This document shows, in pieces, positions 1,161 to 16,101 of a DNA stretch of 18,855 nucleotides. The DNA lies in assembly GCA_023436825.1 (NCBI GenBank), contig JAEZHS010000452.1:1-18855 (forward strand), read 5' to 3'. The stretch comes from Pseudomonadota bacterium (GTDB lineage: Bacteria; Pseudomonadota; Alphaproteobacteria; Reyranellales; Reyranellaceae). The notes under the pieces were generated by a model. That model was not told the origin of the DNA and ran no database searches. It saw nothing but the letters and a program-made list of their open reading frames with translations. The position numbers and the translations under genes are program-made. Within the stretch, counting starts at the first letter, position 1. Each line of letters opens with the position of its first letter.

Positions 1161-1482
1161 GGGCGGCTCTCAAGGTATCGTTCGAGGTGGTCAAGATCGA
1201 CACTTTCGCCGGCAGCCGGTGTTTGCGATAGGGAATCCGAGGCGTCCCGCTAGCCTATACCCCTGGGGAGCGTCAAGACGATGTCGCACCTCGGGCATCG
1301 CCGCATAACTCGCCATGATTCCAGGGCAAATTCCCCCTGCCGATGGCAACAGGAGGCTCCAGCAAGACATTGTCGAGGCTATCTCGGACGGGTTCGCTAT
1401 GCTATGCGACCTGCCGCAATGCTCCCCACCCTGACACCACGTCTTGCGGCCCCCGGCCATCCCGATTTGTCGTTCTAATTCA
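1161..1482. other. Divergent intergenic spacer between TPR gene and exporter
   Basis: These 322 bp separate two divergent transcription units and must hold promoters for both if the genes start as called. I see no convincing -35/-10 pair. A TATGCT at 1398-1403 resembles a -10 box, but the nearest -35-like TTGTCG at 1370 is 22 bp away, too far. No terminator, repeat or small gene is supported. Confidence 0.4.
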
Positions 1483-2394
1483 ATGGTTAACTTGAATAAT
1501 CGCCAGGAACTGCCCGATGCGCCCGTCATGCACTTTGTGGATGGCAAGGCGGTCGAGCCGCGGGACTACAACTGGCTGGAGCGCATCGTCCGCTTCCTGT
1601 TGCGGCCGTTCGTCGAGGCCTGGCACCACCGCGACCTGATTGCGGCAATTCTGCGACGGGAGTTGCGCGAGCGCTTCAGCGGGTCGATGGCCGGCTGGGT
1701 GTGGGCCGTGGTGGCGCCCCTGATTTCGCTCGTTACCTACACCCTTGTCTTCGGCGGCTCGGCGACGCTGCCCAACAAGACCCAGTCCAGTTCGTCGATC
1801 GACTACGCCCTGTTCATCTTCGGCGGGCTGGTGGCGTTCAACTTCTTCACCGAGATGGCGTACCGGGCGCCCTCGCTGCTCCACGAATACGCCCACTACA
1901 TCAAGCAGACGATGTTTCCGGCCGAGATGCTGCCGATCATCTCGACGCTCAGGGCGACGACATATGCCTCGATCGGCCTGGCACTCATGCTGGTCTGCCA
2001 GCTCGTCTTCGCCGGGACGTTGCATTGGACCGTGCTGCTGCTGCCTCTGTGGTTCATCCCGTTCCTGATGTTCCTGATCGGCATCACCTGGCTGCTGTCC
2101 GCCATGGGCGCGTTCACGCGCGACACTGCCTACCTCATGATGACCATCGCCCCGGTGCTGATGTTCGCCACCCCGGTGTTCTTCAGCCACGAAACGCTCG
2201 GCCCCACCTGGTATCTTCTGATGTACGCCAACGTCCTGACCGGCTTCATCGAGACCATCCGCGACCTTGTGGTGTTCGGGAGGATTCCCGCCGGCCTGGT
2301 CATTGCCTGGACGATGTTCATATCGATGTTCTTCTTCTGGTTCGGCTACTGGTTCTTCCGGCGCCAGCAGGATGCGATTGCCGATGTCATCTGA
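1483..2394 (+). CDS. Polysaccharide ABC-2 exporter, permease subunit (Wzm/KpsM family)
   Basis: This is the inner-membrane subunit of an ABC-2 type exporter for polysaccharide (O-antigen, capsule or teichoic-acid type). It has 303 residues from ATG 1483. The N-terminus is soluble (1-60), followed by the amphipathic RRELRERFSGS segment (58-68) and the G-W-x-W motif typical of the family. Hydrophobic stretches lie near 72-92, 108-125, 155-180, 184-210, 217-235 and 270-293, matching the usual six-span topology. The C-terminus overlaps the ATPase gene by 11 bp, so the two are co-translated partners. The start is uncertain: no clear Shine-Dalgarno precedes ATG 1483, and an in-frame ATG at 1528 and TTG at 1444 are alternatives. 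A KpsM/Wzm/TagG-like assignment is secure; the substrate is not known but is presumably the polymer built by this locus. Confidence 0.93.
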   Translation: MVNLNNRQELPDAPVMHFVDGKAVEPRDYNWLERIVRFLLRPFVEAWHHRDLIAAILRRELRERFSGSMAGWVWAVVAPLISLVTYTLVFGGSATLPNKTQSSSSIDYALFIFGGLVAFNFFTEMAYRAPSLLHEYAHYIKQTMFPAEMLPIISTLRATTYASIGLALMLVCQLVFAGTLHWTVLLLPLWFIPFLMFLIGITWLLSAMGAFTRDTAYLMMTIAPVLMFATPVFFSHETLGPTWYLLMYANVLTGFIETIRDLVVFGRIPAGLVIAWTMFISMFFFWFGYWFFRRQQDAIADVI

Positions 2395-3160
2395 GCCCGA
2401 GGTCGTGGTCAGGGCGAGGCACCTCGCCAAGGCCTACAAGCTCTACGACAGCCCCAAGGACTGGGTGAAGCAGCAGCTTCTGGGGTCGGAGAAGAAGCCT
2501 TACTACAAGTCGTTCTGGGCGCTGAAGGACATCAGCTTCGAGGTCCGGCGCGGCAAGAGCCTGGGCATCATCGGTCGCAATGGCTGCGGCAAGTCCACGC
2601 TGCTGCAGATCGTCTGCGGCATGACTCGGCCGACCAAGGGTGAAATCTGGGTCAAGGGCCGTGTCGCCCCGGTGCTGGCGCTCGGCGCCACTTTCGACCT
2701 CGAGGCCACGGGGCGCGAGAACGTGCTGATCGGCGGCGCCGTACTGGGGCTGAAGCGCCAGGAGATCCTGAACAAGTTCGAGTCGATCACCGAGTTCGCC
2801 GGCATCGGCGCATTCATGGACCAGCCGCTGAAGCTCTATTCGGTCGGCATGCGCATGCGGCTCGCCTTTGCCATCTGCGCCCATATCGACGCCGAGATCC
2901 TGATCGTCGACGAGGCGCTGGCGGTGGGCGACCTCGCCTTCCAGAAGAAGTGCGTCGACTGGATCGACAACTTCCGCCGCACCGGCACGCTCCTCTTCGT
3001 CAGCCACTCGACCGGCGAGCTGTCGCGGCTGTGCGAGAGCGCGATGTGGATCGACAACGGTCGCGTCCGCGAAGCCGGCAGCGTCGCCGACGTCGCCCGC
3101 GCCTACCGTCGCGCGACCTTCGTCGAGAAGGACAACATGAAGCGGTTCTCCGCCGTCTGA
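2384..3160 (+). CDS. Polysaccharide ABC exporter, ATP-binding subunit (Wzt/KpsT family, short form)
   Basis: This 258-residue ATPase powers export with the permease just upstream. It carries a Walker A (GRNGCGKST, residues 64-72), a family-typical degenerate signature (LYSVGMRMRLAF, 151-162), Walker B (ILIVDEAL, 172-179) and an H-loop histidine (SHST, 207-210). The start at ATG 2384 overlaps the permease stop, with AGGA about 12 bp upstream; the reading frame is open further upstream, but that part lies inside the permease gene. The protein ends at about residue 258 and lacks the C-terminal carbohydrate-binding domain found in Wzt proteins such as those of E. coli O8/O9a. Export is therefore probably not gated by recognition of a chain-terminal modification within this protein. 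The last base lies 15 bp from the 3' end of the convergent oxygenase gene. Confidence 0.93.
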   Translation: MSSEPEVVVRARHLAKAYKLYDSPKDWVKQQLLGSEKKPYYKSFWALKDISFEVRRGKSLGIIGRNGCGKSTLLQIVCGMTRPTKGEIWVKGRVAPVLALGATFDLEATGRENVLIGGAVLGLKRQEILNKFESITEFAGIGAFMDQPLKLYSVGMRMRLAFAICAHIDAEILIVDEALAVGDLAFQKKCVDWIDNFRRTGTLLFVSHSTGELSRLCESAMWIDNGRVREAGSVADVARAYRRATFVEKDNMKRFSAV

Positions 3161-4067: not shown

Positions 4068-5105
4068 TTACGACCAGGCTTCGATCTCGGCCATCAAGGC
4101 TTTCGCCTTGCCGATCTGCTCGCGCCGAACCCTGTCCCAGCTATCCATGGTCGCCGCGTTGCTTTCCAGCCGATGCTCCCAGCGCTCCGGCAGCAGTTCG
4201 CCGAGAATGATGGCGCACCAGCGAAGACCGTAGAGCGGCATCAACGCCGGCAGGCGATGAGCCTCGGCATGGCGGGTGAAGTGGCCGAGCAGGCTCTCGC
4301 GAAAAGCTGCCTTCTGCCGTTCGTTCAACTGCATGCCGGGGTGCATCACGAAGTTGGCGATGCTGGTCACGGGATCGTCCCAACCGAAGTACTCGAAGTC
4401 AAGGAAGCACAGCTTCCCGTCCGGCGACCTGAGAGCGTTGTGCGCCCCCATGTCGGAGGGAATGAGAGTCCGGAACTGCGGCGCAAGGTCTTCGCCGAGG
4501 TCGAATCCGAGTTGGCCGTACGACTTGGCGGCGCCGACCTCGAAACGGCGCAGCGAGGGCACCAGAACGTCGTCGAAGAACGGCGCGAACTCGGGCACAT
4601 CATGCTTGACCGCCGCCAGCCGGGCGTAGCGGCGTTCGATCTGGGCCAGGATGCGTGGACCTGAGAGGCAGGCTTCGGCCGCTTCGCCGATCTCCGCCCT
4701 GGCCTGGTCGTCGACGCCATGGTCGAGCGCTATCTGAAAGGCGGCGAACTCGGCCACGTCGGCGTCGGTGACGATATCGGCCGGCTCGCCGTCGATCCAG
4801 GTCAGCAGGGCGAAGCGCCGCTCCGGCGACACGGCGACCACTTTGGGCACGCGGCCGATGCCCTTGCGCTCCATGAAGCGCAGCGCGTTGACCTCGCCCT
4901 CGAGCCGGTTGCGGTTGTCGGCGGCCGGGTATTTCTTCAGCGCATAGCGGGCTGCCTGCGTCTCGACCCGGAAGATGCGGCTGTTGCCGCCGCGGCGGAT
5001 CTCGGAGATCGACCGTACCGGCTCGGCGCAGAGCGCTCGGGCGACGTCTTGGATATCGTCAGTCGCCGCGGAAGAGCGCGTCACGGACTTCGTCCCAGGA
5101 GGCAT
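4068..5105 (-). CDS. APH/choline-kinase-like phosphotransferase
   Basis: This is a kinase-fold enzyme of the aminoglycoside phosphotransferase/choline kinase superfamily, expected to phosphorylate a small hydroxylated substrate with ATP. From ATG 5105 it has 345 residues. Visible features are a nucleotide-binding N-lobe (GGNSRIFRVETQAARYALKK), the hinge-like LLTWIDGEP, and a catalytic loop PSDMGAHNAL followed by FLDFEYFGWDDP, where the DFE supplies the metal-binding Asp. In the loop the family's usual H-x-D is S-x-D-like (Ser before Asp), while Asp and Asn are kept. I chose ATG 5105, with GTG 5084 as an alternative; a longer reading to 5219 would run deep inside the preceding HAD gene and has no family-like sequence. 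It overlaps HAD by 47 bp. Pairing with a HAD phosphatase suggests a phosphorylation/dephosphorylation step on a sugar intermediate (inference). Confidence 0.82.
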   Translation of the reverse strand: MPPGTKSVTRSSAATDDIQDVARALCAEPVRSISEIRRGGNSRIFRVETQAARYALKKYPAADNRNRLEGEVNALRFMERKGIGRVPKVVAVSPERRFALLTWIDGEPADIVTDADVAEFAAFQIALDHGVDDQARAEIGEAAEACLSGPRILAQIERRYARLAAVKHDVPEFAPFFDDVLVPSLRRFEVGAAKSYGQLGFDLGEDLAPQFRTLIPSDMGAHNALRSPDGKLCFLDFEYFGWDDPVTSIANFVMHPGMQLNERQKAAFRESLLGHFTRHAEAHRLPALMPLYGLRWCAIILGELLPERWEHRLESNAATMDSWDRVRREQIGKAKALMAEIEAWS

Positions 5106-5664
5106 ATTGCTCGAACTCACTCTGCGGCTCGCTGCCGAACAGGATCTTGCGGCACATCGCCGGCATCTCGGCGTGGCCCAGAACCTCGGCAAGATCGTCG
5201 ACGAACACGTCGCATTCAAGCGCCCTTATGCGCCTCACCTTCTCGTCCCGCGTGCCTTCGAAGTAAACATTGTGGCGGCCGATGCCGAGGCCCGCCGTAT
5301 CGAAGAAGCGATTGCCCTCCATCCAGCGCAACGCGGCGACGCGCAGGTCGGTCATGTGCGGGTCGTGATGCGCAAGCTCGGTCTTGTGGCTGACGATCGC
5401 CACCATGTCGGCTCGCGCCCGGCAGGTTTCCAGGAACCTGGCCACGCCGTCGAACAGGACCGCGGCATCGATCCGGCGGCCGTAGACCAGCCCCTGCAGG
5501 CTCTCCCAGAGAAAGCCGTCGGGACGCTCCGTCAGCAGGGCGCGCTTGACCGCGGCCTTGTTGCCCTTGAACGAAGGCGGCAGCAGCCCCTCCTCCCTGG
5601 CGACGCGCTGGAACGCCTGATCGTAGGAGATGAGCGTGTTGTCGAGATCGATACCCAGTCTCAT
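5059..5664 (-). CDS. HAD-superfamily hydrolase (sugar-phosphatase-like)
   Basis: This 201-residue haloacid-dehalogenase-like protein is a probable phosphatase. Motif I is at the N-terminus (GIDLDNTL, residues 4-11, with the nucleophile and acid/base aspartates in D-L-D). A motif II serine (AIVSHKT) and a motif IV acidic pair (DVFVDDL) follow. It is not the GmhB heptose-bisphosphate phosphatase type, whose motif I reads D-R-D-G-T. The start ATG 5664 overlaps the upstream reductase stop in an ATGA (5661-5664), a typical translational-coupling junction. A longer open frame to 5934 is only a shadow of the reductase gene. Cap-domain sequence between motifs I and II is short to moderate. The substrate cannot be deduced; by context it is probably a phosphorylated sugar. 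Confidence 0.83.
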   Translation of the reverse strand: MRLGIDLDNTLISYDQAFQRVAREEGLLPPSFKGNKAAVKRALLTERPDGFLWESLQGLVYGRRIDAAVLFDGVARFLETCRARADMVAIVSHKTELAHHDPHMTDLRVAALRWMEGNRFFDTAGLGIGRHNVYFEGTRDEKVRRIRALECDVFVDDLAEVLGHAEMPAMCRKILFGSEPQSEFEQYASWDEVRDALFRGD

Positions 5665-6566
5665 CGTGCGCCCGCGGCCGGCTGCGGAAAGCCCGCGAAC
5701 AAGGTGTCGAGAATGTCGCGCGCACTGCGGATCGGCATCGGCAGGGTCCGCGCGATCTTCTCGCAGCCGAGCGTCACGTAGCGGTGGCGATAGATGCTCG
5801 GCACCTGAGCTTCCGTCAGATTCTCTCCCCGGACCAGCGAGACGGGCAGATGCCGCGTCTCGGCCATCAGCCTGGCAGCTTCGAAATAGCCGATCTCGTC
5901 GCTGGAGCCGAGGTGCCAGACGCCGCGATGGCATCCGGCGCCGAGCCGCTCGGCCGCCTCGGCGACGTCGCCGACCATGACCGGCGAGAGTGCCATGTTG
6001 GACGCCGCCTGCACGGGCTGCCCTTTGGCCAGGGCTTCGAACCAGCCCTTGAAGACACCCACCGGATGGTCGGCCAGCACCTTGGTCACGCGCAGGACGG
6101 CGACGGGCAACGCCTCGCGCTCGATCGCCTCCTCGACGGCGCGCTTCTGGGCGCCGTATTCGTTCTTCGGGGCGGTAAGCGCCGCCTCGTCAGGCATCGG
6201 CGTCTCGCCGTCGAATACCTGGCTGCTCGACAGGAACACCAGCTGCGTGCCGCGATCGGCCAGCCGACGCATCACGTCAAGCGTGTTGTCGACGTTGATG
6301 CGGCGCGAGAGCGCCGGTTCGGCCTGGCAGGCCTGCATGCTGGTGACAGCGGCGCAGATGAAGGCGACGTCGTAGTTGCCGTTCTGCAGAGGCGCGACGT
6401 CGGGCTCTGCCAGATCGAGGAAGACGGTGCCGGGCCCCCGGACTCCGGGTCGGCGCGACGTCGTGTCGACCGTCGATCCGAGCTTGCGGCAATGCAGCTT
6501 CAGCGCGGAGCCGACTAGGCTGTCGCCTCCGACGACGAGTGCGCGACCGCTTCTGCCCTGCTCCAT
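5661..6566 (-). CDS. RmlD-like SDR sugar-nucleotide reductase/epimerase
   Basis: This 301-residue short-chain dehydrogenase/reductase is of the extended type, closest in look to dTDP-4-dehydrorhamnose reductases. The Rossmann motif reads VVGGDSLVGSAL (11-22), the substrate loop has SSSQVFDG (113-120), and the catalytic Y-x-x-x-K is Y137-G-A-Q-K141. SSxQVFDG followed by EYGAQK is characteristic of RmlD relatives, which use NAD(P)H to reduce a 4-keto sugar nucleotide. It starts immediately after the stop of the upstream epimerase (TAG then ATG with no spacer), and its own stop overlaps the HAD start. The exact sugar is unknown; no matching RmlA/RmlC is present, and the only RmlB relative in the window is a pseudogene. 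A 4-keto-sugar reductase role is inferred, not shown. Confidence 0.82.
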   Translation of the reverse strand: MEQGRSGRALVVGGDSLVGSALKLHCRKLGSTVDTTSRRPGVRGPGTVFLDLAEPDVAPLQNGNYDVAFICAAVTSMQACQAEPALSRRINVDNTLDVMRRLADRGTQLVFLSSSQVFDGETPMPDEAALTAPKNEYGAQKRAVEEAIEREALPVAVLRVTKVLADHPVGVFKGWFEALAKGQPVQAASNMALSPVMVGDVAEAAERLGAGCHRGVWHLGSSDEIGYFEAARLMAETRHLPVSLVRGENLTEAQVPSIYRHRYVTLGCEKIARTLPMPIRSARDILDTLFAGFPQPAAGAR

Positions 6567-7580
6567 CTACTGGAGATTTACCTTCTGCATCGTCTTGATG
6601 TTGAAGTAGCGCGGATCTTCGAGCGAGTTGGGCAGGCGACCGTCCTTGAAGGCCTTGATCAGGTCGACGACGGCCTCCTCGATCGTGTGGCTGGCCTCGA
6701 ATCCCAGCTCGTCTTTGATCTTCTTCGACGACACGTGATAGGAGCGCATGTCGTTGGTGTTCTGCACCTTGAGCTTGCAGTCCGGGCCGACGTTGCGCTG
6801 GACCATCTCGGCGAGCTGCATCACCGAATGGTTCTCGTAGCCCGCGTTGTAGACCTTGCCGTTGACCTTCTCGTCCGGCGCCAGCAGCAGCAGCATGTAG
6901 GCGTCGGCCATGTCCTCGATGTGGTTGTTCGGGCGCAGCTGAGTGCCGCCGAACACCGAGACCTCGCCCTTGTGCACGCCGAGGTTGGTCAGGATGTTGA
7001 CCACGACGTCGAGCCGCTGGCGGGGCGAGTAGCCGCACACCGTGGCCGGACGGATCGTCACCGTGGTGAAGCCGGGCGCCCGCTCCTGCTCGAGCAGGAC
7101 TTCGCACTCGGCCTTGAACTTCGAATAGTCGGTCAGCGGCTCTAGCGAGAGGTCCTCTGTCACCTCGACGCCGTCCTTGATGCCGTAGACCGACGAGGAT
7201 GAAGCGTAGATGAAGCGCTTGACCTTGGCGTCCTTGGAGGCACGCACCAGCGGCACGAAGGCGTCGAGGTTGATCGACCGGCCGAGGTCGGGATTGAGCT
7301 CGAACGAGGGGTCGTTGGAGATGCAGGCGAGATGGATGACGGCGTCGCAGCCCTGCAGCGCCTGCTTGACCACCTCGGCGTCGCGAATGTCGCCCTTGAC
7401 CTCGCGCAGCGAGGCGCCGCGGGAGCTCTTGAGCACGTCCTCGCCGTACATGAAGAGGTCGAGGACGGTCACCTGATAGCCGGCCGCGAGGAGCTTCGGC
7501 ACGAGCACCGCGCCGACATAGCCCGCGCCACCGGTGACCAGCACGCGATTGAGGTTGGGATTCTTCTGGTATCGACTCAT
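6567..7580 (-). CDS. NAD-dependent SDR epimerase/dehydratase (sugar nucleotide)
   Basis: This 337-residue extended SDR carries TGGAGYVG for NAD binding (16-23), the D-I-R-D segment near 64-67, HLACISNDPS (83-92), the catalytic SSSSVYG (127-133) and Y152-S-K-F-K156. The C-terminal half (RPNNHIEDMADAYMLLL and NAGYENHSV) is the usual sugar-nucleotide-binding pattern of UDP/GDP-sugar epimerases or dehydratases. The S-S-S-S-V-Y-G loop lacks the T-D-E triad of 4,6-dehydratases, so a 4-epimerase or C4 redox role is more likely. It starts at ATG 7580 after a 49-bp spacer and is joined end-to-start with the RmlD-like reductase. The enzyme class is secure and the substrate is not. Confidence 0.87.
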   Translation of the reverse strand: MSRYQKNPNLNRVLVTGGAGYVGAVLVPKLLAAGYQVTVLDLFMYGEDVLKSSRGASLREVKGDIRDAEVVKQALQGCDAVIHLACISNDPSFELNPDLGRSINLDAFVPLVRASKDAKVKRFIYASSSSVYGIKDGVEVTEDLSLEPLTDYSKFKAECEVLLEQERAPGFTTVTIRPATVCGYSPRQRLDVVVNILTNLGVHKGEVSVFGGTQLRPNNHIEDMADAYMLLLLAPDEKVNGKVYNAGYENHSVMQLAEMVQRNVGPDCKLKVQNTNDMRSYHVSSKKIKDELGFEASHTIEEAVVDLIKAFKDGRLPNSLEDPRYFNIKTMQKVNLQ

Positions 7581-7629: not shown

Positions 7630-9153
7630 TCATTTCAAGAGCGTCGACAGGTACTTTAGGATTTCCGGCTTGGTGATCTGATGACGCTGACCGACGATGC
7701 GGACCTTCATCGCACCGACGGCGTTGCCGATGAAAGCCGCAAGATACGGGTCGCTGCCTGCGGCCAGCAACGGGCCCGCCAGGGCGAAGAAGGCATCGCC
7801 GGCACCGATCGTATCGATGGCCTCGCCGGTCAGCGCCGGAATGCGCTTCACGCCGGCCTGCGGCGTGTAGACGATGCTGCCGAGCTTGCCGTGCGTGATC
7901 ACGAAGGTGTGGCAGTCGATCTTCTTCTCGAGCTTCTCGCGCACCACCGTCTCGATCGGCGCATAGCGCTCGACCGCCGCCAGGCGCGCCTCGGGCTCGT
8001 CGATGCAGATGAAATCGGCACGCGGGTACTTGGTGATCAGGTTGAAGCCGCGATTGGCGCTGTTGGTCTGGGCGTTGACGGCCAGGAACTTCGACTTGCG
8101 GCAGACGATGTCGACGAGGCCGTCGTCGATCATGCCGTGGCCGAAGTCGTTGACGATGACGGCGTCGTAGTCGGCGATGTTCTTCTCGACCCAGTCGTTC
8201 AACGTCGCCTGCTCGGGCGCGGGCAGCGCCTCGTCGGAGATGTAGGCGACCTCGATCAGCTTCTTCACGTAGGCCGGGTCGACCAGCCGGCTCTTGACCG
8301 TGGTCTGGCCACCTTCGCGGTAGAACGGCACCAGGTTGATGTTCTGGTTCAGGTTGGAGCGGATCAACTCCTCGTGGCTCTGCGACTTGCCGAGCAGGGT
8401 CACGAGATCGACACTGGCGCATACCTGGCTGACGAGGTTGGCGGTGGCGATCGCGCCGCCGCAGAAGATCTCCCGGCTCCTGTACCTGGTGGCGATGATG
8501 TTTTCCTTGGCGGGCTTGCCCAGCGGCTCGACGTAGATGTACTCGTCGAGAATGGTGTCGCCGATCACCAGGCAGCGCTTCTTCTCGACGGCCGCCACTT
8601 CCCTCTTCACGTCGTCGACCGAGATGCGCGAGCGCAGGTCCTTGAGGTAGGCCGCCGTCTCCTCCGGATAGAGCGACATCACGCGGTTGGAGAGGTTCGA
8701 CGAGCTGAAGGTGATGTCCTCGGTATAGAGCACCTCGCCGCCGAACTTCTCCACGGTCAACCGCTCGGTCTTGATGCGGCCGGTGACGTCGGCCTCCTCG
8801 TCGGCGTACTCCGAACCCTTCAGGTAGTAGCTGGGCTTGATGGTCTCGAGCACATGCTCGGCGCCGGGATTGGGCGAGATGCCCACGAAGTCGACGCAGG
8901 CCAGCGCAGCGACCATCTCGGCGCGCAGCTTCTCCGAAAACACCGGCCGATCGGGCCCCTTGTTGACGAACTTGTCGGTGGTCAGCGTGACAATGAGCAG
9001 GTCGCCGTGACGCTTGCCGATGTCGAGGTGGCGTTTGTGCCCGACATGGAGGATGTCGAACACGCCGTGCGCGAGCACCACCTTGCGGCCCTTCGCGCGC
9101 GCCGCAGCAGCGATCTCGCCCAGCTCGCCGAGCGTCTTGATCTTTTCGAACAT
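7630..9153 (-). CDS. Bifunctional sugar nucleotidyltransferase (N-term) / PfkB-type sugar kinase (C-term), HldE/RfaE-like with swapped domain order
   Basis: This 507-residue fusion has two recognisable halves. Residues about 1-160 form an RfaE/TagD-type cytidylyltransferase, with AHGVFDILHVGHKRHLD containing the H-x-G-H nucleotide-binding signature at 36-39. Residues about 190-507 form a ribokinase/PfkB-family sugar kinase, with a glycine-rich FCGGAIATANL (230-240), VNDFGHGMID (335-344, comparable to the S-D-Y-G-K-G of HldE) and the catalytic DTIGAGDAFF (447-456). Known HldE has the kinase first and the nucleotidyltransferase second, so the order here is reversed. The expected activities are 1-phosphorylation or related kinase work and NTP activation of a heptose-like or other sugar. 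Start ATG 9153 has AAGGGA about 11 bp upstream. Family membership of both domains is strong; the sugar and nucleotide are inferred. Confidence 0.88.
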   Translation of the reverse strand: MFEKIKTLGELGEIAAAARAKGRKVVLAHGVFDILHVGHKRHLDIGKRHGDLLIVTLTTDKFVNKGPDRPVFSEKLRAEMVAALACVDFVGISPNPGAEHVLETIKPSYYLKGSEYADEEADVTGRIKTERLTVEKFGGEVLYTEDITFSSSNLSNRVMSLYPEETAAYLKDLRSRISVDDVKREVAAVEKKRCLVIGDTILDEYIYVEPLGKPAKENIIATRYRSREIFCGGAIATANLVSQVCASVDLVTLLGKSQSHEELIRSNLNQNINLVPFYREGGQTTVKSRLVDPAYVKKLIEVAYISDEALPAPEQATLNDWVEKNIADYDAVIVNDFGHGMIDDGLVDIVCRKSKFLAVNAQTNSANRGFNLITKYPRADFICIDEPEARLAAVERYAPIETVVREKLEKKIDCHTFVITHGKLGSIVYTPQAGVKRIPALTGEAIDTIGAGDAFFALAGPLLAAGSDPYLAAFIGNAVGAMKVRIVGQRHQITKPEILKYLSTLLK

Positions 9154-9197: not shown

Positions 9198-10190
9198 CTA
9201 CTGGCGGCCGAGATAGGTGAACCAGTCCTTGGTCGCCACGGCGATCGAATCCGGCGTCCAGACCGGTGCGTCGCGCCAATAATCTATGACCTTCAGCATG
9301 TTCTGCACGCCGTCTTCAATCGGCACTTTCGACGTCCAGCCGAGCTCGGCCTTGATCCGTCTGGTGTCAGCGAATGTGCAATCAGGTTCGCCGGGCCGCT
9401 TGGGAATATGCACCGTCTCGGGTGCCTTGAGGAGCTTGGCCAGGTAGTTGACCGACACGGGATTGTCGCTGCCCACATTCAGGCACACCCCTACCTTGTT
9501 CGATTCGGCAGCACAAATCAGGGCATCGACGGCGTCCGATACATAGGTGAAGTCGCGCGTCTGCTCTCCGTCGCCGACGATGGTGAGCGGCTTGCCGGCC
9601 AGCAATTGGGCCAGGAAGACGCCGAATACGGCGCCGTAGGTTCCGCTGGTGCGGGCCCGCGGCCCGTAGATGTTGAAGAAGCGCAGCGACAGCGCGGGCA
9701 AGCCATAGACCTGAGACCAATGCATGACTTCGCACTCGCCCAGCCACTTGGTGAGCGCATAGGGATATTGCGGCCGGATCTCCGCCGTCTCCGGCGTCGG
9801 ATAGGAATCGGGAATGCCGTAGCACGACGACGAGGCGACGTAGACGAAGCGTTTGATGTTCGCTGCGCGCGCCGCCTGCAATGTCACGAAGGTGCCGACG
9901 ACATTGGAGCGGAAATAGCCCTCGGGGTTGACGATCGAAGGAACGATGTCGGCGAGCGCAGCGAGGTGGAAAACCCGGTCGACGCCGGCCATAGCCTTGG
10001 CCATCGCCGCGGGATCGGCGACGTCGGCGGCCATGACCTCGAGCTTGGGGTTGTCCTTGTGCTGGATGAGATTGCGCGGCTTGCCGACTTCCATGTTGTC
10101 GACCACGCGCACCGAACGGCCGAGGCTGAGCAGGCGGTCCGTCAGGTGGGAACCGATGAAGCCGGCGCCGCCGGTCACGAGATCAAGCAT
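9198..10190 (-). CDS. NAD-dependent UDP-glucose-4-epimerase-like SDR
   Basis: This 330-residue extended SDR has TGGAGFIGSHL (6-16), the acidic D31-N-x at the end of the second strand for NAD preference, HLAALADIVPS (75-85), SSSCYG (120-125) and Y144-A-L-T-K148. The LRFFNIYGPR and GDGEQTRDFTYVSDAV segments are hallmark regions of UDP-hexose(NAc) 4-epimerases. S-S-S-C-Y-G rather than a T-D-E triad argues against a 4,6-dehydratase. It lies 44 bp upstream (in transcription) of the kinase fusion and 54 bp downstream of the methyltransferase, in the same operon. It is probably a 4-epimerase of UDP- or another NDP-sugar. The class is firm, the exact substrate is not. Confidence 0.87.
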   Translation of the reverse strand: MLDLVTGGAGFIGSHLTDRLLSLGRSVRVVDNMEVGKPRNLIQHKDNPKLEVMAADVADPAAMAKAMAGVDRVFHLAALADIVPSIVNPEGYFRSNVVGTFVTLQAARAANIKRFVYVASSSCYGIPDSYPTPETAEIRPQYPYALTKWLGECEVMHWSQVYGLPALSLRFFNIYGPRARTSGTYGAVFGVFLAQLLAGKPLTIVGDGEQTRDFTYVSDAVDALICAAESNKVGVCLNVGSDNPVSVNYLAKLLKAPETVHIPKRPGEPDCTFADTRRIKAELGWTSKVPIEDGVQNMLKVIDYWRDAPVWTPDSIAVATKDWFTYLGRQ

Positions 10191-10244: not shown

Positions 10245-10910
10245 TCATTCGAAGAAGATGAAGCCCCAGTCGCCCTGGTATCCGCTCTGCTTGTAGATCC
10301 ACTCCCAGTTCTTGACGTCGTGGAAGGATTCGCAGGTGAGCTGCCAATACAGCAGATTCATGCGCTCGCGCTCGTTCCGCCAGGATTCGACCATGATGTA
10401 CTTCCTGGTCCCCTTGCCTACCCGCTCGATCTCGCGCACGGCATCGTAGAGCTGGCTGATCGGAAAGTTGTGCAGGGTCCCCAGCGAGACGACGAAATCG
10501 AACGACTTGTCGGGATACGGCAGCGAGACGGCGTTGCCGACCTTGAGGAAGGGCTTCACCTCTTCCTTGGCATTGGCGATCGCATAGTCGGAGATGTCGA
10601 TGCCCTCGATGTGAACGCCGGGCACCGCGCGGGTGAATTCGTGCAGGAGGAAGCCCTTGCCGCAACCGACATCGAGGATGCGGTCGCCGGCCTTCAGGCC
10701 GTAGTGCTTGGCCATCGCCTCGGCGATCGGCAGCCAGCGACCGTCGTACCTGTAGCCGCCATAGCCGTACTGCCGCTCGCCGTCCCAGTAGTCCTGGCCG
10801 TACTTCTTGGCGATCTCCGAGCAGTCGGCCTTGTCGTACTGGACGACCCGGCCGACGTAGTCGCGCTTCGTCCGGTTATGCAGGGGGCCGATGAAATCTA
10901 CGTTAGCCAT
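10245..10910 (-). CDS. Class I SAM-dependent methyltransferase
   Basis: This 221-residue protein has a clear Rossmann-type SAM site: motif I ILDVGCGKGF (78-87), an acidic motif II region (GIDISDYAIANAKEE, 103-117) and motif III/IV around PYPDKSFDFVVSLGTLHNF (131-149). The long N-terminal tail and Y-rich YGQDYWDGERQYGYGGY (37-53) resemble sugar methyltransferases of polysaccharide clusters, but no named subfamily is claimed. I chose ATG 10910 because it begins MANVDFIG just after the previous gene; longer in-frame readings run into that gene. It overlaps the LIC12192-like gene by 13 bp, so the two are probably translationally coupled. The likely role is O- or N-methylation of a sugar intermediate or of the growing glycan. 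Confidence 0.85.
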   Translation of the reverse strand: MANVDFIGPLHNRTKRDYVGRVVQYDKADCSEIAKKYGQDYWDGERQYGYGGYRYDGRWLPIAEAMAKHYGLKAGDRILDVGCGKGFLLHEFTRAVPGVHIEGIDISDYAIANAKEEVKPFLKVGNAVSLPYPDKSFDFVVSLGTLHNFPISQLYDAVREIERVGKGTRKYIMVESWRNERERMNLLYWQLTCESFHDVKNWEWIYKQSGYQGDWGFIFFE

Positions 10911-11323
10911 CGCTCGATCTCTTGATAGTTCAGATCCCGGCAGATGTGCGCCGTGCGCAGCACATTCTCCCAGCGCTCGATATCCGTCTCGTCGGCCAGC
11001 ACGAAGCCTTCTACTGCCGAGTGCAGACCGCCGCCAGCGTCGAGCAGGCGCCGATATATCCGACTTCGCTCGCCGGCAGCCGCCGGCAGCATGAACATGC
11101 TGTAGAGGATCACGCCCTCGAGCGTCGCCATCTCGTCCAGGACCTGCTCCAGGATCAGATAGCAGCCCGGCATGGCGTACTCGGTGGCGCTCAGCAGATA
11201 GTGAAGCTTGCGGCGCGCGGCATAGTCGCGGATCACGAGATTCTGGATGTGCTGTGGCACCCTGTGATTGTCGACCGACCGACTGAAGACGTACCCGCGA
11301 TAGCCCTTCCGGTTGGACTGCAT
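10898..11323 (-). CDS. LIC12192-family 'sporadic carbohydrate cluster' protein (unknown function)
   Basis: This 141-residue protein matches my recollection of the small family named 'sporadic carbohydrate cluster protein, LIC12192 family', first noted in Leptospira surface-polysaccharide loci. Recognisable parts are GYRGYVFSR (7-15), VPQHIQNLVIRDYA (22-35), YLLSATEYAMPGCY (42-55) and a conserved YSMFMLP (74-80). It is soluble, with no signal peptide and no known cofactor motif. Its start overlaps the oxygenase stop by one base (TGATG), and its end overlaps the methyltransferase. No enzymatic function is established to my knowledge. Its constant company with sugar-tailoring genes suggests a step in unusual-sugar synthesis. 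The family call is from memory and is worth a profile check. Confidence 0.75.
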   Translation of the reverse strand: MQSNRKGYRGYVFSRSVDNHRVPQHIQNLVIRDYAARRKLHYLLSATEYAMPGCYLILEQVLDEMATLEGVILYSMFMLPAAAGERSRIYRRLLDAGGGLHSAVEGFVLADETDIERWENVLRTAHICRDLNYQEIERWLT

Positions 11324-12132
11324 CAGGCGACCGACGGCAGCCTGTAGCTGGCGCCGATAGTGGTCGCCGGACGCACCAGGATCGGCTCGAAGAATTCACC
11401 GAGCTTCTTGTCGTGGTACGGCGAAAACACGCTCTTGAAGCGGCAGTTGGTCGACCACCGGGTCTCCGGTTCCCGATTGACGATGTTCCCGTGCATGACG
11501 TTCTGGGTGAACAGCAGGACATTGCCGTAGGGAATGTCGAGCCAGCGCAGGTCGGGCTCGATGGTGCGGTAGAGCTCCTCGGCGGACTTGAGCTTCAACT
11601 CGCCCATTCGCGCCTGATAGCGGCCATCCTTGTCGCGCGGCAGGATGAACATCGTCTTGGTGCCGTAGACGTGGACGTAGGGAATCCACAGGACGACCTC
11701 GTACGGCGAATCGCCGGCCCAGACGTCCGCATGTACCGGCAGCAGCGAGCTGTCGTCGTTGGGAAGCTGGATGCTGAGATTGATGCGAAGCTGCATGGCC
11801 AGCTCGTTGCCGACCAGGACCTCGAGCGCGCGGCGCGCGGTGTTGAAATAGGACAGCCGTATCCAAGGCTCCTCGTTCATCTCGCGGATCACCGCGAGGC
11901 GAAGATCGTTGAGGCGGTGGGCATCGACCTTGTCGTGGATGTGGTCGAGGAACGCCCCCTTGTCCTCGGGCCGCGGCAGCTTGAGGAAGGCCGCGGCGAT
12001 ATCGGCCATGAGATCGCGGATCCGATCGAGGTCGGCGCGCGACTCGGCGGGGATGATGACGTAGCCGTCACGCACGAAGGCATCGGCCAAGGCGCGTTCC
12101 TCGTCCCGCCAGAAACTGGGGGAACTGCTCAC
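11323..12132 (-). CDS. Fe(II)/2-oxoglutarate oxygenase of sporadic carbohydrate clusters
   Basis: This 269-residue protein is a PhyH-like oxygenase distinct from the one at the operon's end. The iron ligands are visible as H134-A-D136 in LLPVHADVWAG and H214 in TQNVMHGN; the 2OG-binding arginine is probably R225 (EPETRWSTN). VVLWIPYVHVYGTKTMFILP (147-166) gives the core strands. I recall this type being named 'sporadic carbohydrate cluster 2OG-Fe(II) oxygenase', which fits its position beside the LIC12192-family gene. The start is GTG 12132, overlapping the transketolase stop as GTGA; the frame is open to 12435 but that part is a shadow. It probably hydroxylates or oxidises a sugar carbon, although the natural substrate is unknown. 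Confidence 0.82.
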   Translation of the reverse strand: MSSSPSFWRDEERALADAFVRDGYVIIPAESRADLDRIRDLMADIAAAFLKLPRPEDKGAFLDHIHDKVDAHRLNDLRLAVIREMNEEPWIRLSYFNTARRALEVLVGNELAMQLRINLSIQLPNDDSSLLPVHADVWAGDSPYEVVLWIPYVHVYGTKTMFILPRDKDGRYQARMGELKLKSAEELYRTIEPDLRWLDIPYGNVLLFTQNVMHGNIVNREPETRWSTNCRFKSVFSPYHDKKLGEFFEPILVRPATTIGASYRLPSVA

Positions 12133-13076
12133 CGGCGCAGCTCCGCCAGGAGCTTGCGCACCGTCGCATTGATGCCCTTGGCGTCGAACCGGAAGTCCTC
12201 CATCAGCTTCGCCTGGCTGCCGTAGTGATCGGCGAACTTGTCCGGAATGCCGAGCCGCTTGAGCGGCGGCAATCCGCGGGTCAAGCGGTCCGACAGGGTC
12301 TCCAGGACGGCGCTGCCCAACCCGCCGACGACGCTGTGCTCCTCGACGGTGACGACCAGCCTGGCCTGGCTCGCGGCATCGACGATGGCGTCGGCATCGA
12401 GCGGCTTGACGGTGTGGACGTGCAACAGGCGGCACCGGATGCCGTCCGCCGCCAGCGAGCCCGCCGCCTTGAGCGCCTGCGTGGTGGCGACACCCGTGCT
12501 GACGAGCAGCACGTCCGATGCGCCGGTCTCGCCGTCGATCATGTCGATCGCCTTGCCGATGGCGAAGCCACGCTCGGGCTTGCTGATGATGGGATCACCA
12601 CCCTTGCCGAGACGGATATAGATCGGATGCGGCCAGTCGAGCGTGGCGTCCATCAGCCGGGTCATCTCGTCGGCATCGCAAACCGCGGTGACGGTCATGC
12701 GCGGCAGGGCGCGCATGATGGCGATGTCCTCGATCGCCTCGTGCGTGGGCCCGAGCGGTGCATAGACGTAGCCGCCGCCGTTGCCGATCAGCCGTACCGG
12801 CAGGTCGTGCAGGCAGAGATCGACCGCGACCTGCTCGTAGCAGCGCCGCGTGATGAAGGTGGCGATCGTGTTGACGTAGGGAACGAACCCGTCCATCGCC
12901 ATGCCGGCCGCCATGCCGATGACGTTGGCCTCGGCAATGCCCTCCATGTAGTAGCGCTGCGGAAACTCCTTCTTCATCTCGCCGAGCAGGTTCGGCGAGA
13001 GGTCGGAGCCGATGAACACGACACGCTCGTCGCGCTTGGCGAGCGTATGGACCATGTCGAGACTGCGCTTACGCAT
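12129..13076 (-). CDS. Transketolase, C-terminal subunit (split form)
   Basis: This 315-residue protein has the pyrimidine-binding and C-terminal domains of a transketolase-type thiamine-diphosphate enzyme. Visible motifs are MEGIAEANVIGMAAGMA (44-60), with the cofactor-activating Glu in I-A-E, FITRRCYEQVA (74-84) and GPTHEAIEDIA (109-119), where the His is a substrate contact in transketolases. The C-terminal part (VEEHSVVGGLGSAV) is typical. A split transketolase works only as a complex with its N-terminal partner, encoded 14 bp upstream; GAAGGGAAG precedes ATG 13076. The complex transfers a two-carbon ketol unit between sugar phosphates, for example making sedoheptulose-7-phosphate. Location inside a polysaccharide operon suggests a dedicated rather than housekeeping role. 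Confidence 0.92.
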   Translation of the reverse strand: MRKRSLDMVHTLAKRDERVVFIGSDLSPNLLGEMKKEFPQRYYMEGIAEANVIGMAAGMAMDGFVPYVNTIATFITRRCYEQVAVDLCLHDLPVRLIGNGGGYVYAPLGPTHEAIEDIAIMRALPRMTVTAVCDADEMTRLMDATLDWPHPIYIRLGKGGDPIISKPERGFAIGKAIDMIDGETGASDVLLVSTGVATTQALKAAGSLAADGIRCRLLHVHTVKPLDADAIVDAASQARLVVTVEEHSVVGGLGSAVLETLSDRLTRGLPPLKRLGIPDKFADHYGSQAKLMEDFRFDAKGINATVRKLLAELRR

Positions 13077-13090
13077 CGCTCAGCTTCCCT

Positions 13091-13951
13091 TCAACTGCCA
13101 AGGGCGCTGCGGACGATCTGCAGCTCGGCCGGCTTCAGATCGGACTTGTGGTGCCAGTCGGGATTGTTTTCGGCCGCGGGAATGCCCTTGCCCTTGACCG
13201 TATGGCAGATCACCGCGCGCGGCCGGTCGCCGGCGTAAACGGCGGCGTCGCGGAAGACCTGCCGCAGGTCGGCGACATCGTGGCCGTTGCACTCGAACAC
13301 CCGGAAGCCGAAGGCGGTCCACTTGTCGGCCAGCGGCTCCATGTTCTGGATCTCGAAGACGCTGCCGGCCGACTGAATCTTGTTGTAGTCGATGATCGCC
13401 GTCAGGTTGGACAGCCGGTGCTTGTCGGCGCAGGCTGCCGCCTCCCAGACCGCCCCTTCGTTGATCTCGCCGTCACCCATCAGTACGTAGACCTTGCTGT
13501 CGCGGCCCTGCATGCGGGCGGCGAGCGCCATGCCCAGACCGATCGACAGGCCATGGCCGAGAGCGCCCGTGCAGGCCTCGACGCCGGGTACCACCGTCTC
13601 GGGATGGCCGCCGAGGAACGAATCGAAATGGCAGAAGCGGTCGAGCTCAGCCACGTCGAAGAAGCCCTTGTCGGCCAACACTGCGTAGAGCGCCAGGCAG
13701 CCGTGGCCCTTGCTCAGGATGAAGCGATCCCGCTCGCGCCACCCGGGCCGGGCCGGATCGTGCCTCAGGAAATCGTCATAGAGGACACGAATGATCTCGA
13801 CCAACGACAGGGCGGGTCCGATGTGCCCACGCCCTCCGTTCTCGATAGCCCGCATGATCAGCCGCCGCAGATGCCTGCTGCGATCATCCAACGTGGCCTG
13901 TTGGACCAAATCGAGGTCGGTTGCGTACTTGAGCGCAGTCTGATGCTTCAT
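13091..13951 (-). CDS. Transketolase, N-terminal subunit (split form)
   Basis: This 286-residue protein holds the diphosphate-binding half of transketolase. The thiamine-diphosphate/metal motif is GDGEINEG (159-166) with the partner asparagine in IDYNKIQ (N190). Substrate-site histidines are seen in GGRGHIGPALS (39-49), ILSKGHGCLALY (78-89) and GALGHGLSIGLGMA (129-142). The C-terminal HTVKGKGIP (250-258) is also standard. It is the first gene of the twelve-gene operon; ATG 13951 begins MKHQTALKYA and only a weak purine-rich stretch (GAAAG) precedes it. The upstream 1.2 kb contains repeats rather than genes. Domain assignment is strong; the specific ketol donor and acceptor are unknown. Confidence 0.92.
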   Translation of the reverse strand: MKHQTALKYATDLDLVQQATLDDRSRHLRRLIMRAIENGGRGHIGPALSLVEIIRVLYDDFLRHDPARPGWRERDRFILSKGHGCLALYAVLADKGFFDVAELDRFCHFDSFLGGHPETVVPGVEACTGALGHGLSIGLGMALAARMQGRDSKVYVLMGDGEINEGAVWEAAACADKHRLSNLTAIIDYNKIQSAGSVFEIQNMEPLADKWTAFGFRVFECNGHDVADLRQVFRDAAVYAGDRPRAVICHTVKGKGIPAAENNPDWHHKSDLKPAELQIVRSALGS

Positions 13952-15177: not shown

Positions 15178-16101
15178 TCAACATGCAGCGTGCATCTGAC
15201 GGATCCGAGCGACGCCAGGCCATCCATCACCCAAGCCCCAAAAGTCGCCGCGATATGCCCCGATCATGACCCGTTCCCACCACCCCTCGTGATCGAGGTA
15301 CCAGCACACGGCCTGGCGCAGCCCGTCCTCGAAACTGTGGCGCGGCCGCCAGCCGAGTTCGGTCTTGATCTTGGCGGCATCGATGGCGTAGCGCGCATCG
15401 TGGCCGGGCCGGTCGATGACGAACTCAATCAGCCGCTCATGCGGCCGGTGCGGGCTTCCGGGCACCATCTCGTCGAGCAGGGCGCAGATCGTGCGGACGA
15501 CGTCGATGTTCTTGCGCTCGCTGTCGCCGCCCACATTGTAGGTCTCGCCGGGTCAGCCCTGGCGCAGCACCAGGGTCAGCGCCTCGGCATTTCCTCGACA
15601 TGCAGCCAGTCGCGCACGTTCTCGCCCTTGCCGTAGACCGGCAGGCTCGGGCCGCGCAGCGCGCGGATGATGACGAGCGGGATCAGCTTCTCGGGGAAGT
15701 GTTAGGGCCCGTAGTTGTTGGAGCAGTTGGTGGCGAGCGTCGGCAGGCCGTGCGTGTGGTGCCAGGCGCGCACCAGATGATCCGACGCAGCCTTGCTCGC
15801 GGCGTAGGGCGAGTTGGGCGCGTAGGGCGTGGTCCCGCTAAACTTGCCGCTGGCCCCCAGCGAGGCCGAACCCCTCGTCGGGCCGGAAACTTGCGAAGAT
15901 GCCGTCGATCGCCACGCGGTCCGTGATGTCGACCTTGAAATGCGTGTGCCGGTTGCTGTCGCGCGCCTCGGCCAGCGATTCGAGGTTGCCGGCGTAGGTC
16001 AGCTTATCGACATTGGCCACCGTCCAGTCGGTGTCGCGGATGATGTGGCGCACAACTGCCGAGCCGATGAACCTCGCGCCGCCGGTGACAAGGATTCTCA
16101 T
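15178..16101 (-). pseudogene. rfbB: Decayed dTDP-glucose 4,6-dehydratase (rfbB/rmlB)
   Basis: Stretches in three frames align in order with RmlB, which converts dTDP-glucose to the 4-keto-6-deoxy sugar. The N-terminus starts at ATG 16101 ([17 protein letters not shown], then [15 protein letters not shown]). The middle reads [40 protein letters not shown] and [14 protein letters not shown]. The C-terminus reads [31 protein letters not shown] and [15 protein letters not shown]. Lesions: G to R in the NAD motif; an in-frame internal deletion near 15871-15879 that joins R-P-D-E to the residues after S-T-D-E and removes roughly 65-75 residues; an extra C just after it; a TAA at 15702-15704 replacing the tyrosine of G-P-Y-H-F; a one-base loss near 15588; and a TGA at 15553-15555. 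It cannot encode a working enzyme. Confidence 0.93.

What the first reader, a model, noticed from the sequence alone, without database searches (positions are those of the whole stretch)
10245..13951. Sugar-tailoring module built on a split transketolase and a LIC12192-family protein
Seen: transketolase N and C, an Fe/2OG oxygenase, a LIC12192-like protein and a methyltransferase are packed with overlaps of 1-13 bp or a 14-bp gap. Known: the LIC12192 family and its companion oxygenase are named for sporadic carbohydrate clusters but have no established reaction that I know of. Inference: the five genes form a unit that adds or moves a two-carbon ketol unit on a sugar, then oxidises and methylates it, giving a branched or long-chain sugar. 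A C10 sugar, bradyrhizose, is known from Bradyrhizobium O-antigen, so unusual carbon skeletons in alphaproteobacterial glycans have precedent.
Basis: partly seen in the sequence, partly recalled or inferred. Interest (0 to 1): 0.8.

Follow-up and report, generated by a model that had tools for sequence, protein, structure and literature searches.

The report
Bradyrhizose-like sugar genes with split transketolase
This stretch of bacterial DNA carries a conserved set of about ten genes that probably builds an unusual branched, longer-than-normal sugar, and it shares its core with the gene set linked to bradyrhizose, a ten-carbon sugar whose synthesis is unexplained.

Summary
The five genes are real, at the stated coordinates and with the stated overlaps. 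They are half of a conserved module of about ten: SDR1, nucleotidyltransferase-PfkB, SDR2, HAD, APH-type kinase, tktN, tktC, Fe/2OG oxygenase, LIC12192, methyltransferase. The five-gene order is kept in 69 of 80 loci. The transketolase keeps its ketol-transfer residues, but a pocket His and Asp are lost and an Arg is Lys in 75 of 75 copies.

Main new result: published mutant primers place gdh of Bradyrhizobium ORS285, whose disruption abolishes the bradyrhizose O-antigen, directly before a split transketolase. That 11-gene cluster also holds homologues of the window's SDR2, NT-PfkB, HAD, APH and methyltransferase (56% identical), with an alcohol dehydrogenase instead of oxygenase plus LIC12192. 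A third form uses a radical SAM protein. LIC12192 has a predicted serine-recombinase fold.

Best reading: ketol transfer to a keto-sugar, giving a branched higher-carbon sugar. The product is untested. Against an O-antigen role: A. lipoferum Sp59b carries most of the module, yet its published O-antigen is ordinary, and in 7 of 8 Bradyrhizobium genomes the module lies 0.44-0.55 Mb from rfaL.

The parts
13091..13951 (-). tktN: N-terminal (ThDP-binding) subunit of split transketolase
   Evidence: PF00456 E 1.2e-53; closest solved structure 6yak, split TK N-chain, E 5.3e-70; His of the GH, KGH, GHP and WH motifs and the DGE of GDGE invariant in 72 of 72 rows
12129..13076 (-). tktC: C-terminal subunit of split transketolase with altered acceptor pocket (GGGxVYAPLGPTH, RLGKGG)
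   Evidence: PF02779, PF02780; 6yaj E 7.1e-54; His to Gly, Asp to Leu, Arg to Lys in 75 of 75 module copies
11323..12132 (-). Fe(II)/2OG oxygenase, sporadic carbohydrate cluster type (GTG start)
   Evidence: TIGR04324 306 bits; H134, D136, H214 and R225 invariant in 39 of 39 aligned copies; AF2 model pLDDT 88, PDB matches are 2OG oxygenases but with TM-scores of only 0.38-0.51
10898..11323 (-). LIC12192-family protein, predicted serine-recombinase catalytic-domain fold
10245..10910 (-). class I SAM methyltransferase, family shared with the ORS278/ORS285 bradyrhizose-linked cluster
   Evidence: Methyltransf_11 E 1.6e-17; 56% identical over 221 columns to the ORS278 protein
9198..10190 (-). SDR1: NDP-sugar epimerase/dehydratase family
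   Evidence: PF01370 E 9e-57; YxxxK at 144
7630..9153 (-). NT-PfkB: nucleotidyltransferase fused to PfkB kinase (HldE domains in swapped order)
   Evidence: rfaE_dom_I and rfaE_dom_II matches below their cut-offs; PF01467 + PF00294
6567..7580 (-). SDR2: NDP-sugar SDR, 42.5% identical to SDR2 of the ORS278 cluster
   Evidence: PF01370 E 1.8e-39; blastp
5661..6566 (-). RmlD-like reductase (accessory; relatives in 17 of 80 loci at best)
   Evidence: PF04321 E 2.7e-28; one search found 17 hits
5059..5664 (-). HAD-type protein (named by eye from its DxDxT start), 39% identical to the ORS278 cluster protein
   Evidence: no NCBIfam match (on a longer frame) and no Pfam match; blastp E 1.8e-37
4068..5105 (-). 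APH-type kinase
   Evidence: PF01636 E 1.3e-12; 29% to the ORS278 cluster protein
1444..3160 (+). Wzm/Wzt-type polysaccharide ABC exporter (two genes, 1444-2394 and within 2267-3160; starts uncertain), probable export system
   Evidence: NCBIfam galactan/teichoic export ABC matches below cut-off; beside the module in 5 of 5 near loci that reach that far (L008, L009, L010, L012, L013)

Best explanation
The window carries a nucleotide-sugar module that makes a branched or higher-carbon sugar. SHOWN: the ten-gene module is conserved; its transketolase keeps the ThDP and ketol-transfer residues but has lost the acceptor-pocket His and Asp, and one Arg is now Lys; its core (split transketolase, MT, HAD, APH, SDR2, NT-PfkB) recurs in the 11-gene cluster whose gdh gene is needed for the bradyrhizose O-antigen (polar effects not excluded by its authors). 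INFERRED: the heptose-type enzymes (NT-PfkB, HAD, SDRs, GmhA-like SIS in some loci) make an NDP-activated sugar; an SDR sets a ketone, probably at C4; the transketolase transfers a ketol unit to that ketone, leaving a tertiary alcohol with a hydroxyacetyl branch; a redox step follows (oxygenase with LIC12192 here, radical SAM or alcohol dehydrogenase elsewhere); MT methylates. For bradyrhizose the arithmetic fits: heptose C7 + ketol C2 + one C1 = C10, and the reported ring closures through O4, O5 and O9 imply that C4 is a tertiary carbinol bonded to C5 and C9, which ketol addition to a C4 ketone followed by an aldol closure would give. The window's own product need not be bradyrhizose.
For: Order tktN-tktC-2OG-LIC-MT in 69 of 80 loci; 2OG directly before LIC in 80 of 80. 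Co-occurrence 7 of 7 against 26 of 391, p 1.4e-8. Pocket changes in 75 of 75 at positions (D469, R520) whose engineering in E. coli TK shifts the acceptor from phosphorylated to other aldehydes (PMC5073344, abstract and passages). Primers of the published gdh mutant fall in the gene next to tktN in ORS285; the eleven genes are syntenic in the four genomes compared. Control: of 12 split TKs outside the module, 0 have a HAD, APH or MT relative nearby (L186-L194, L196, L198, L199). [quoted passage not shown]
Against: No enzyme here has been assayed. In the TK tree the window-type and bradyrhizose-type TKs are two well supported groups whose relation is unresolved, and several other split TKs without the module also lack the His and Asp, so that change alone does not prove a sugar acceptor. 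NT-PfkB and APH are only 25-29% identical to their ORS278 counterparts. The published gdh phenotype may be polar. A. lipoferum Sp59b (L017) has eight of the ten genes (no SDR1, SDR2 over threshold) but a published O-antigen of Gal, Rha and Man (review passage). In 8 of 8 window-type Bradyrhizobium genomes checked the module is far from rfaL: 0.44-0.55 Mb in seven, 1.2 Mb in G416.
Confidence: 0.55

Rival explanations
1. The transketolase is only a dedicated supplier: it makes sedoheptulose 7-phosphate (or another ketose phosphate), which GmhA-like SIS, NT-PfkB and HAD turn into an ordinary NDP-heptose that is then oxidised and methylated.
For: NT-PfkB matches both HldE domains, below cut-off; SIS proteins in the ORS278 cluster and in L012 match GmhA, below cut-off; HAD and kinase fit the heptose logic.
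Against: The phosphate/acceptor pocket residues are changed in 75 of 75 copies, odd for a sugar-phosphate supplier; it gives no reason why a C10-sugar cluster should keep the TK beside MT and ADH.
Confidence: 0.25
2. The transketolase works in the breaking direction: it removes a ketol unit from a keto-sugar intermediate to give a shorter sugar.
For: Transketolase reactions are reversible in general (recalled); the sequence cannot tell direction.
Against: The sugar attached to the homologous cluster has ten carbons, more than any simple precursor.
Confidence: 0.07
3. The genes are neighbours in a polysaccharide locus but serve separate products; the oxygenase and LIC12192 act on something else than the transketolase product.
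For: 2OG + LIC occur without TK on long flanks in L015, L049, L085, L087; L038 (Bradyrhizobium) has a DegT aminotransferase gene between tktC and 2OG, so the set is open to additions.
Against: Order kept in 69 of 80 loci, Alpha- and Betaproteobacteria among them, and the slot between tktC and MT is refilled by other redox enzymes rather than left empty.
Confidence: 0.13

Closest known systems
11-gene gdh cluster of photosynthetic Bradyrhizobium (ORS278, ORS285, BTAi1, B. oligotrophicum), linked to bradyrhizose O-antigen (PMC4743980)
   Same: Split transketolase with the same His/Asp loss and Arg-to-Lys change, MT (56%), SDR2 (43%), HAD (39%), APH (29%), NT-PfkB (25%, same swapped domain order)
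   Different: Has a zinc-type alcohol dehydrogenase, a sugar nucleotidyltransferase, GmhA-like SIS and gdh; lacks 2OG and LIC12192; lies 32 kb from rfaL in ORS278; its TK is a separate branch of the tree
Split-gene transketolases proposed for miharamycin and amipurimycin (PMC12247030, section 2.3 read)
   Same: Split-gene TK; proposed ketol transfer to a keto-sugar
   Different: Streptomycete antibiotics, not proteobacterial sugar loci; their sequences were not compared here
YerE-type ThDP enzymes, yersiniose (PMC12247030 passages)
   Same: ThDP-dependent C2 branching at a 4-keto-sugar giving a tertiary alcohol, in LPS
   Different: Decarboxylase superfamily using pyruvate, not a transketolase
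Carboxydothermus hydrogenoformans split transketolase (6yaj, 6yak; PMC7661550 passages)
   Same: Two-chain transketolase, closest solved structure
   Different: By its authors keeps R358, S385, D469 and R520 equivalents; studied with hydroxypyruvate and simple or bulky aldehydes
Serine recombinase (resolvase) catalytic domains
   Different: No detectable sequence similarity; catalytic Ser position appears to hold an invariant Arg (recalled motif)

Membership tests
TIGR04323 LIC12192 family | NCBIfam curated cut-off 55 bits | tested here: met
   146.5 bits
TIGR04324 sporadic carbohydrate cluster 2OG-Fe(II) oxygenase | NCBIfam curated cut-off 150 bits | tested here: met
   306.4 bits
TIGR04324 sporadic carbohydrate cluster 2OG-Fe(II) oxygenase | 2-His-1-carboxylate iron site and 2OG-binding Arg | tested here: met
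   H134, D136, H214, R225 invariant in 39 rows; assignment of the Arg to 2OG is by analogy
Transketolase (two-chain) | N and C domain families | tested here: met
   PF00456, PF02779, PF02780 above their cut-offs; no NCBIfam transketolase equivalog reaches its whole-length cut-off, as expected of half-length chains
Canonical pentose-phosphate transketolase | Acceptor and phosphate pocket residues (EcTK D469, R520 and the neighbouring His) | tested here: not met
   Asp to Leu, Arg to Lys, His to Gly in 75 of 75; mapping by alignment to 6yaj
Bradyrhizose-linked 11-gene cluster | Same gene set | tested here: not met
   tktN, tktC, MT, SDR2, HAD, APH, NT-PfkB have window homologues; gdh only distant SDRs (24-26%); ADH, NTPT and SIS have no blastp match among the window proteins used as queries. 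It works like it; it is not the same cluster
Bradyrhizose-linked 11-gene cluster | Product is bradyrhizose | not testable with these tools
   needs glycan chemistry
Serine recombinase superfamily | Catalytic-domain fold | tested here: met
Serine recombinase superfamily | Sequence-level match | tested here: not met
   no resolvase family among the 5 Pfam families matched by any of 49 members; no PDB recombinase by profile at E 10
Serine recombinase superfamily | Catalytic serine after strand 1 | tested here: inconclusive
   Arg15 is invariant at the place a recalled G-Y-x-R-x-S motif would put Ser; no residue-level structural alignment was available

The most novel reading that the evidence does not exclude
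Split, ketone-accepting transketolases are a general device of proteobacterial surface glycans. They build the tertiary C4 centre of bradyrhizose by adding a ketol to an NDP-4-keto-heptose, and ring closure follows an oxidation done by one of three interchangeable systems: alcohol dehydrogenase, radical SAM, or a 2OG oxygenase whose partner LIC12192 is a serine-recombinase domain put to a new, non-DNA use in sugar chemistry.
Probability: 0.3. Interest if true: 0.9.

Novelty: new variant of a known kind. Interest (0 to 1): 0.74.

Why it matters
[quoted passage not shown] the word transketolase does not occur in its main text), and a search for 'bradyrhizose' found only four papers, none on its enzymes in what I saw. 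The comparison gives a specific, testable carbon-carbon bond-forming enzyme for it, extends the same core to 33 of 398 sampled genomes of the phylum, and gives a structural lead for LIC12192, for which two name searches found no paper. If the transketolase accepts ketones it would also help to make tertiary alcohols, a gap that a 2025 review names.

Tried and rejected
Considered and set aside: (1) that the LIC-type module is simply the O-antigen locus swapped into the same place in Bradyrhizobium: rejected. In eight window-type genomes (G336, G405, G424, G500, G538, G605, G645, G416) the best rfaL relative is 444-547 kb away in seven and 1.2 Mb in G416, against 32 kb in G497 and 35 kb in G423. 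(2) That the His/Asp loss is unique to the module: rejected; several split TKs without the module share it. (3) That window-type and bradyrhizose-type TKs are sisters: not resolved. (4) LIC12192 as a sequence-detectable resolvase: no match; one of 49 members gave a chance-level Pox_F16 match (E 0.05), a family I recall as an inactive serine recombinase; the paper search on it was seen as a listing only. (5) Leptospira, the source of the name LIC12192, was not examined: none of the 80 loci is from it by title. (6) Paper searches with no hit: 'LIC12192', 'sporadic carbohydrate cluster' (13), 'split transketolase' + 'polysaccharide' (15), 'transketolase' + 'branched-chain sugar' + 'nucleotide sugar' (16). 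'bradyrhizose' gave 4 papers (17): passages seen in three, the fourth (PMC9671505) in the listing only. 'transketolase' + 'O-antigen' + 'split' gave 13, seen as a listing apart from PMC12247030. The library lacks most subscription journals, so work on bradyrhizose biosynthesis may exist.

Limits of the counts: the search for related loci kept the best 80 of 137; by genus label 39 of 80 are Bradyrhizobium, so the 80 are not independent; among the 41 others tktC is in 35, tktN in 34, MT in 37. Genome searches scored only the first few candidates per genome (5, 8). In Bradyrhizobium, 64 of 265 genomes have a window-type TK (E <= 1e-117) and 19 a weaker match (E 1e-61 to 1e-71); the 11-gene cluster is directly shown in 4 of the 10 photosynthetic genomes with the weaker match and in G436, G506, G561; it is absent around the match in G418, G451, G606; G566, G567, G499 were not examined and the other six photosynthetic genomes were judged by TK identity alone (95.8-98.7% to ORS278). 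The exclusivity p of 0.025 and the photosynthetic-association p of 5e-9 counted those six as having the cluster and the three unexamined as lacking it, and ignore relatedness. The HAD/APH/MT Fisher tests (p 0.0007, 0.0002, 0.0007) used 12 rSAM-type loci (L130 left out) against nine controls; one control, L190, holds only 3.2 kb, and controls L191 and L193 have weak SDR and nucleotidyltransferase relatives. The TK tree has 60 rows after near-copies were dropped.

The alignment of tktC residues to EcTK numbers is my reading of the alignment to 6yaj plus recalled motifs.
Full report
Observation. Family models confirm each: Transketolase_N; Transket_pyr plus Transketolase_C; TIGR04324; TIGR04323; Methyltransf_11. 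Downstream on the same strand come SDR1 (9198-10190), a nucleotidyltransferase-PfkB fusion (7630-9153), SDR2 (6567-7580), an RmlD-like gene, a HAD-type gene and an APH-type kinase; a Wzm/Wzt-type exporter lies beyond on the plus strand. Among relatives named to species the nearest LIC12192 is that of Reyranella soli, 95%. The window's own assembly is not held.

Conservation. A scan of named genomes gave 137 places that encode a LIC12192 relative; the best 80 were kept. tblastn of the window proteins on those 80 finds 2OG and LIC in 80, MT 75, tktC 74, tktN 73, APH 71, SDR2 69, NT-PfkB 68, HAD 67, SDR1 60. All five genes are in 70 of 80 and in the order tktN-tktC-2OG-LIC-MT in 69; the oxygenase is directly before LIC in 80 of 80. 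The commonest full order, SDR1-NTPfkB-SDR2-HAD-APH-tktN-tktC-2OG-LIC-MT, occurs in 47 of 80; the window and its near kin have the two halves the other way round. Among the 66 loci with more than 6 kb on both sides of LIC, tktN and tktC are in 61. By phylum label the 80 are 76 Pseudomonadota, 2 Acidobacteriota, 2 Myxococcota. LIC and 2OG without TK on long flanks: L015, L049, L085, L087; L019 has only a weak tktN hit; in L057 and L077 the TK pair is on the opposite strand. In a separate phylum sample of 398 genomes, TIGR04323 is in 7 and a close tktC (E <= 1e-90) in 33, which include all 7: p 1.4e-8.

The transketolase. tktN keeps the His residues of the GH, KGH, GHP and WH motifs and the DGE of the GDGE motif in 72 of 72 rows, the window's among them. 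tktC keeps the catalytic Glu in the rows printed, but the stretch THAGLTVGEDGASH of the C. hydrogenoformans enzyme is GGGxVYAPLG(P/A)T(H/Y) in 75 of 75 module copies, and RLGRSG is R-x-(G/A)-K-G. So the pocket His and Asp are gone and the Arg is Lys. Directed-evolution work on E. coli TK shows that S385, D469 and R520 help to decide whether the acceptor is a phosphorylated or another aldehyde (PMC5073344, abstract and passages). The close TKs from genomes without TIGR04323 carry VYAPLG or VYAPQG. Some other split TKs lack the His and Asp too, so this is a mark of non-canonical use, not proof of a sugar acceptor.

Three forms of one core. Of the 26 genomes with a close tktC but no TIGR04323, wider DNA was fetched for 13 (L118-L130). 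A radical SAM protein scoring over 100 bits is in 13 of 13. In 11 of the 12 printed it is at least 61% identical to the one in L048; it is directly behind tktC in nine of them and next to MT in L120 and L128; L122 has only a 27% relative placed elsewhere, and L130's was not printed. HAD is in 10 of 13, APH in 11 of 13, MT in 9 of 13; L118 has none of the three. In six LIC loci the order is 2OG-LIC-rSAM-MT, so the two systems can coexist (L018, L023, L048, L051, L052, L081). As a control, nine other split TKs with their surroundings (L186-L194, 3.2 to 19.5 kb) have no HAD, APH or MT relative, nor have three further Bradyrhizobium ones (L196, L198, L199): 0 of 12.

Bradyrhizose. PMC4743980 (passages read) reports that disruption of gdh in ORS285 abolishes the O-antigen made of bradyrhizose, that gdh sits in an 11-gene cluster about 44 kb from rfaL, syntenic in six photosynthetic strains, that the bradyrhizose genes were unknown, and that polar effects are possible; 'transketolase' does not occur in its main text. 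I found photosynthetic Bradyrhizobium genomes with PF00124 (27 of 265) and searched them with the window's tktC: 16 of 27 match at E <= 1e-60, six at 61-62% identity (window-type) and ten at 43-44%. The last 19 bases of the paper's gdh primers match ORS285 (G639) exactly at 1,978,094 and 1,978,447, inside the gene directly before tktN, and the rfaL primers match 45 kb away. The eleven genes in ORS278 are NT-PfkB, sugar nucleotidyltransferase, SDR2, GmhA-like SIS, gdh, tktN, tktC, zinc-type alcohol dehydrogenase, HAD, APH, MT; all eleven are syntenic at 91-100% in G497, G639, G423 and G482. Against the window: MT 56%, tktN 44%, tktC 43%, SDR2 43%, HAD 39%, APH 29%, NT-PfkB 25%. This tktC also has Gly and Leu in place of the His and Asp, and the Lys. 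The TK tree keeps window-type (support 99) and bradyrhizose-type (100, with L131) as two groups with an unresolved relation.

Chemistry (inference). A review states that bradyrhizose is a ten-carbon bicyclic sugar whose aldehyde closes on O4 (furanose) or on O5 or O9 (pyranoses) (PMC9912281, passages); another calls it inositol-fused (PMC9042403, passage). Such closures require C4 to bear OH and to be bonded to C3, C5 and C9. Ketol addition to a C4 ketone makes that centre; an aldol between the ketol CH2OH carbon and an oxidised C7 would close the carbocycle C4-C9, and one further carbon gives C10. A C-methyltransferase with Methyltransf_13/14 domains follows MT in ORS278 and is another possible source of that carbon. 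I do not know from any call where C10 is attached. The cluster's gdh matches dTDP-glucose 4,6-dehydratase at 197 bits, below that family's cut-off of 365, so its reaction is open too. A 2025 review reports split-gene TKs proposed for ketol transfer to keto sugars in streptomycete antibiotics, none yet characterised in vitro (PMC12247030 section 2.3); the word bradyrhizose does not occur in it.

Oxygenase. H134, D136, H214 and R225 are invariant in 39 rows. The model (pLDDT 88) matches 2OG oxygenases that include hydroxylases, a halogenase domain and the epimerase SnoN, with TM-scores of only 0.38-0.51, so its reaction cannot be called from fold.

Against. A. lipoferum Sp59b (L017) has NT-PfkB, HAD, APH, tktN, tktC, 2OG, LIC and MT but no SDR1 or SDR2 over threshold, and its O-antigen is described as Gal, Rha and Man (PMC4153317 passage): there the sugar, if made, is elsewhere. 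In 8 of 8 window-type Bradyrhizobium genomes checked the module is far from rfaL, 0.44-0.55 Mb in seven and 1.2 Mb in one. No genome of 265 shows two matches at E <= 1e-60, which may reflect phylogeny and the limit of eight scored candidates.

Verdict. The link to the bradyrhizose cluster turns it into a testable proposal; the mechanism itself is not shown.

Noticed in passing
window 15178-15534 (-): A 118-aa fragment matching only the last third of dTDP-glucose 4,6-dehydratase (profile 251-353 of 355), probably a remnant gene; an 87% counterpart is in L008.
   Followed up: partly
window 17793-18855 (+): GDP-mannose 4,6-dehydratase, 570 bits, cut by the window's end.
   Followed up: no
window 3176-4048 (-): 290-aa reading frame with no NCBIfam or Pfam match but relatives in L008, L009, L010.
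   Followed up: no
L072, L077, L080, L081: HAD and APH are fused into one 546-548 aa protein in four loci, suggesting that the two act together.
   Followed up: partly
L057:10001 onward: LIC12192 is fused to a second domain that looks by eye like a zinc-type C-methyltransferase, in a Myxococcales genome (518 aa).
   Followed up: no
L038:6988-8094: A DegT/DnrJ/EryC1 aminotransferase sits between tktC and 2OG in this Bradyrhizobium locus; its family is in 23 of the loci, positions there not checked. The sugar there may be an amino sugar.
   Followed up: partly
L162:14818-16604: Behind the 11-gene ORS278 cluster: a Methyltransf_13/23/14 C-methyltransferase and a protein that by eye resembles family 8, found in 44 LIC-type loci.
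   Followed up: partly
L195 (G436), L197 (G506), L200 (G561): The 11-gene bradyrhizose-linked cluster (58-94% identical) occurs in three Bradyrhizobium genomes without a PF00124 match, i.e. apparently not photosynthetic.
   Followed up: partly
L131 (G085): A genome of another family has a bradyrhizose-like cluster: tktN, tktC (54% to ORS278), gdh (56%), SIS, SDR2, nucleotidyltransferase, NT-PfkB.
   Followed up: partly
L186-L194: Further groups of split transketolases with an altered pocket (several with GGGFSYGxLG or similar) sit in other contexts and deserve their own look.
   Followed up: no
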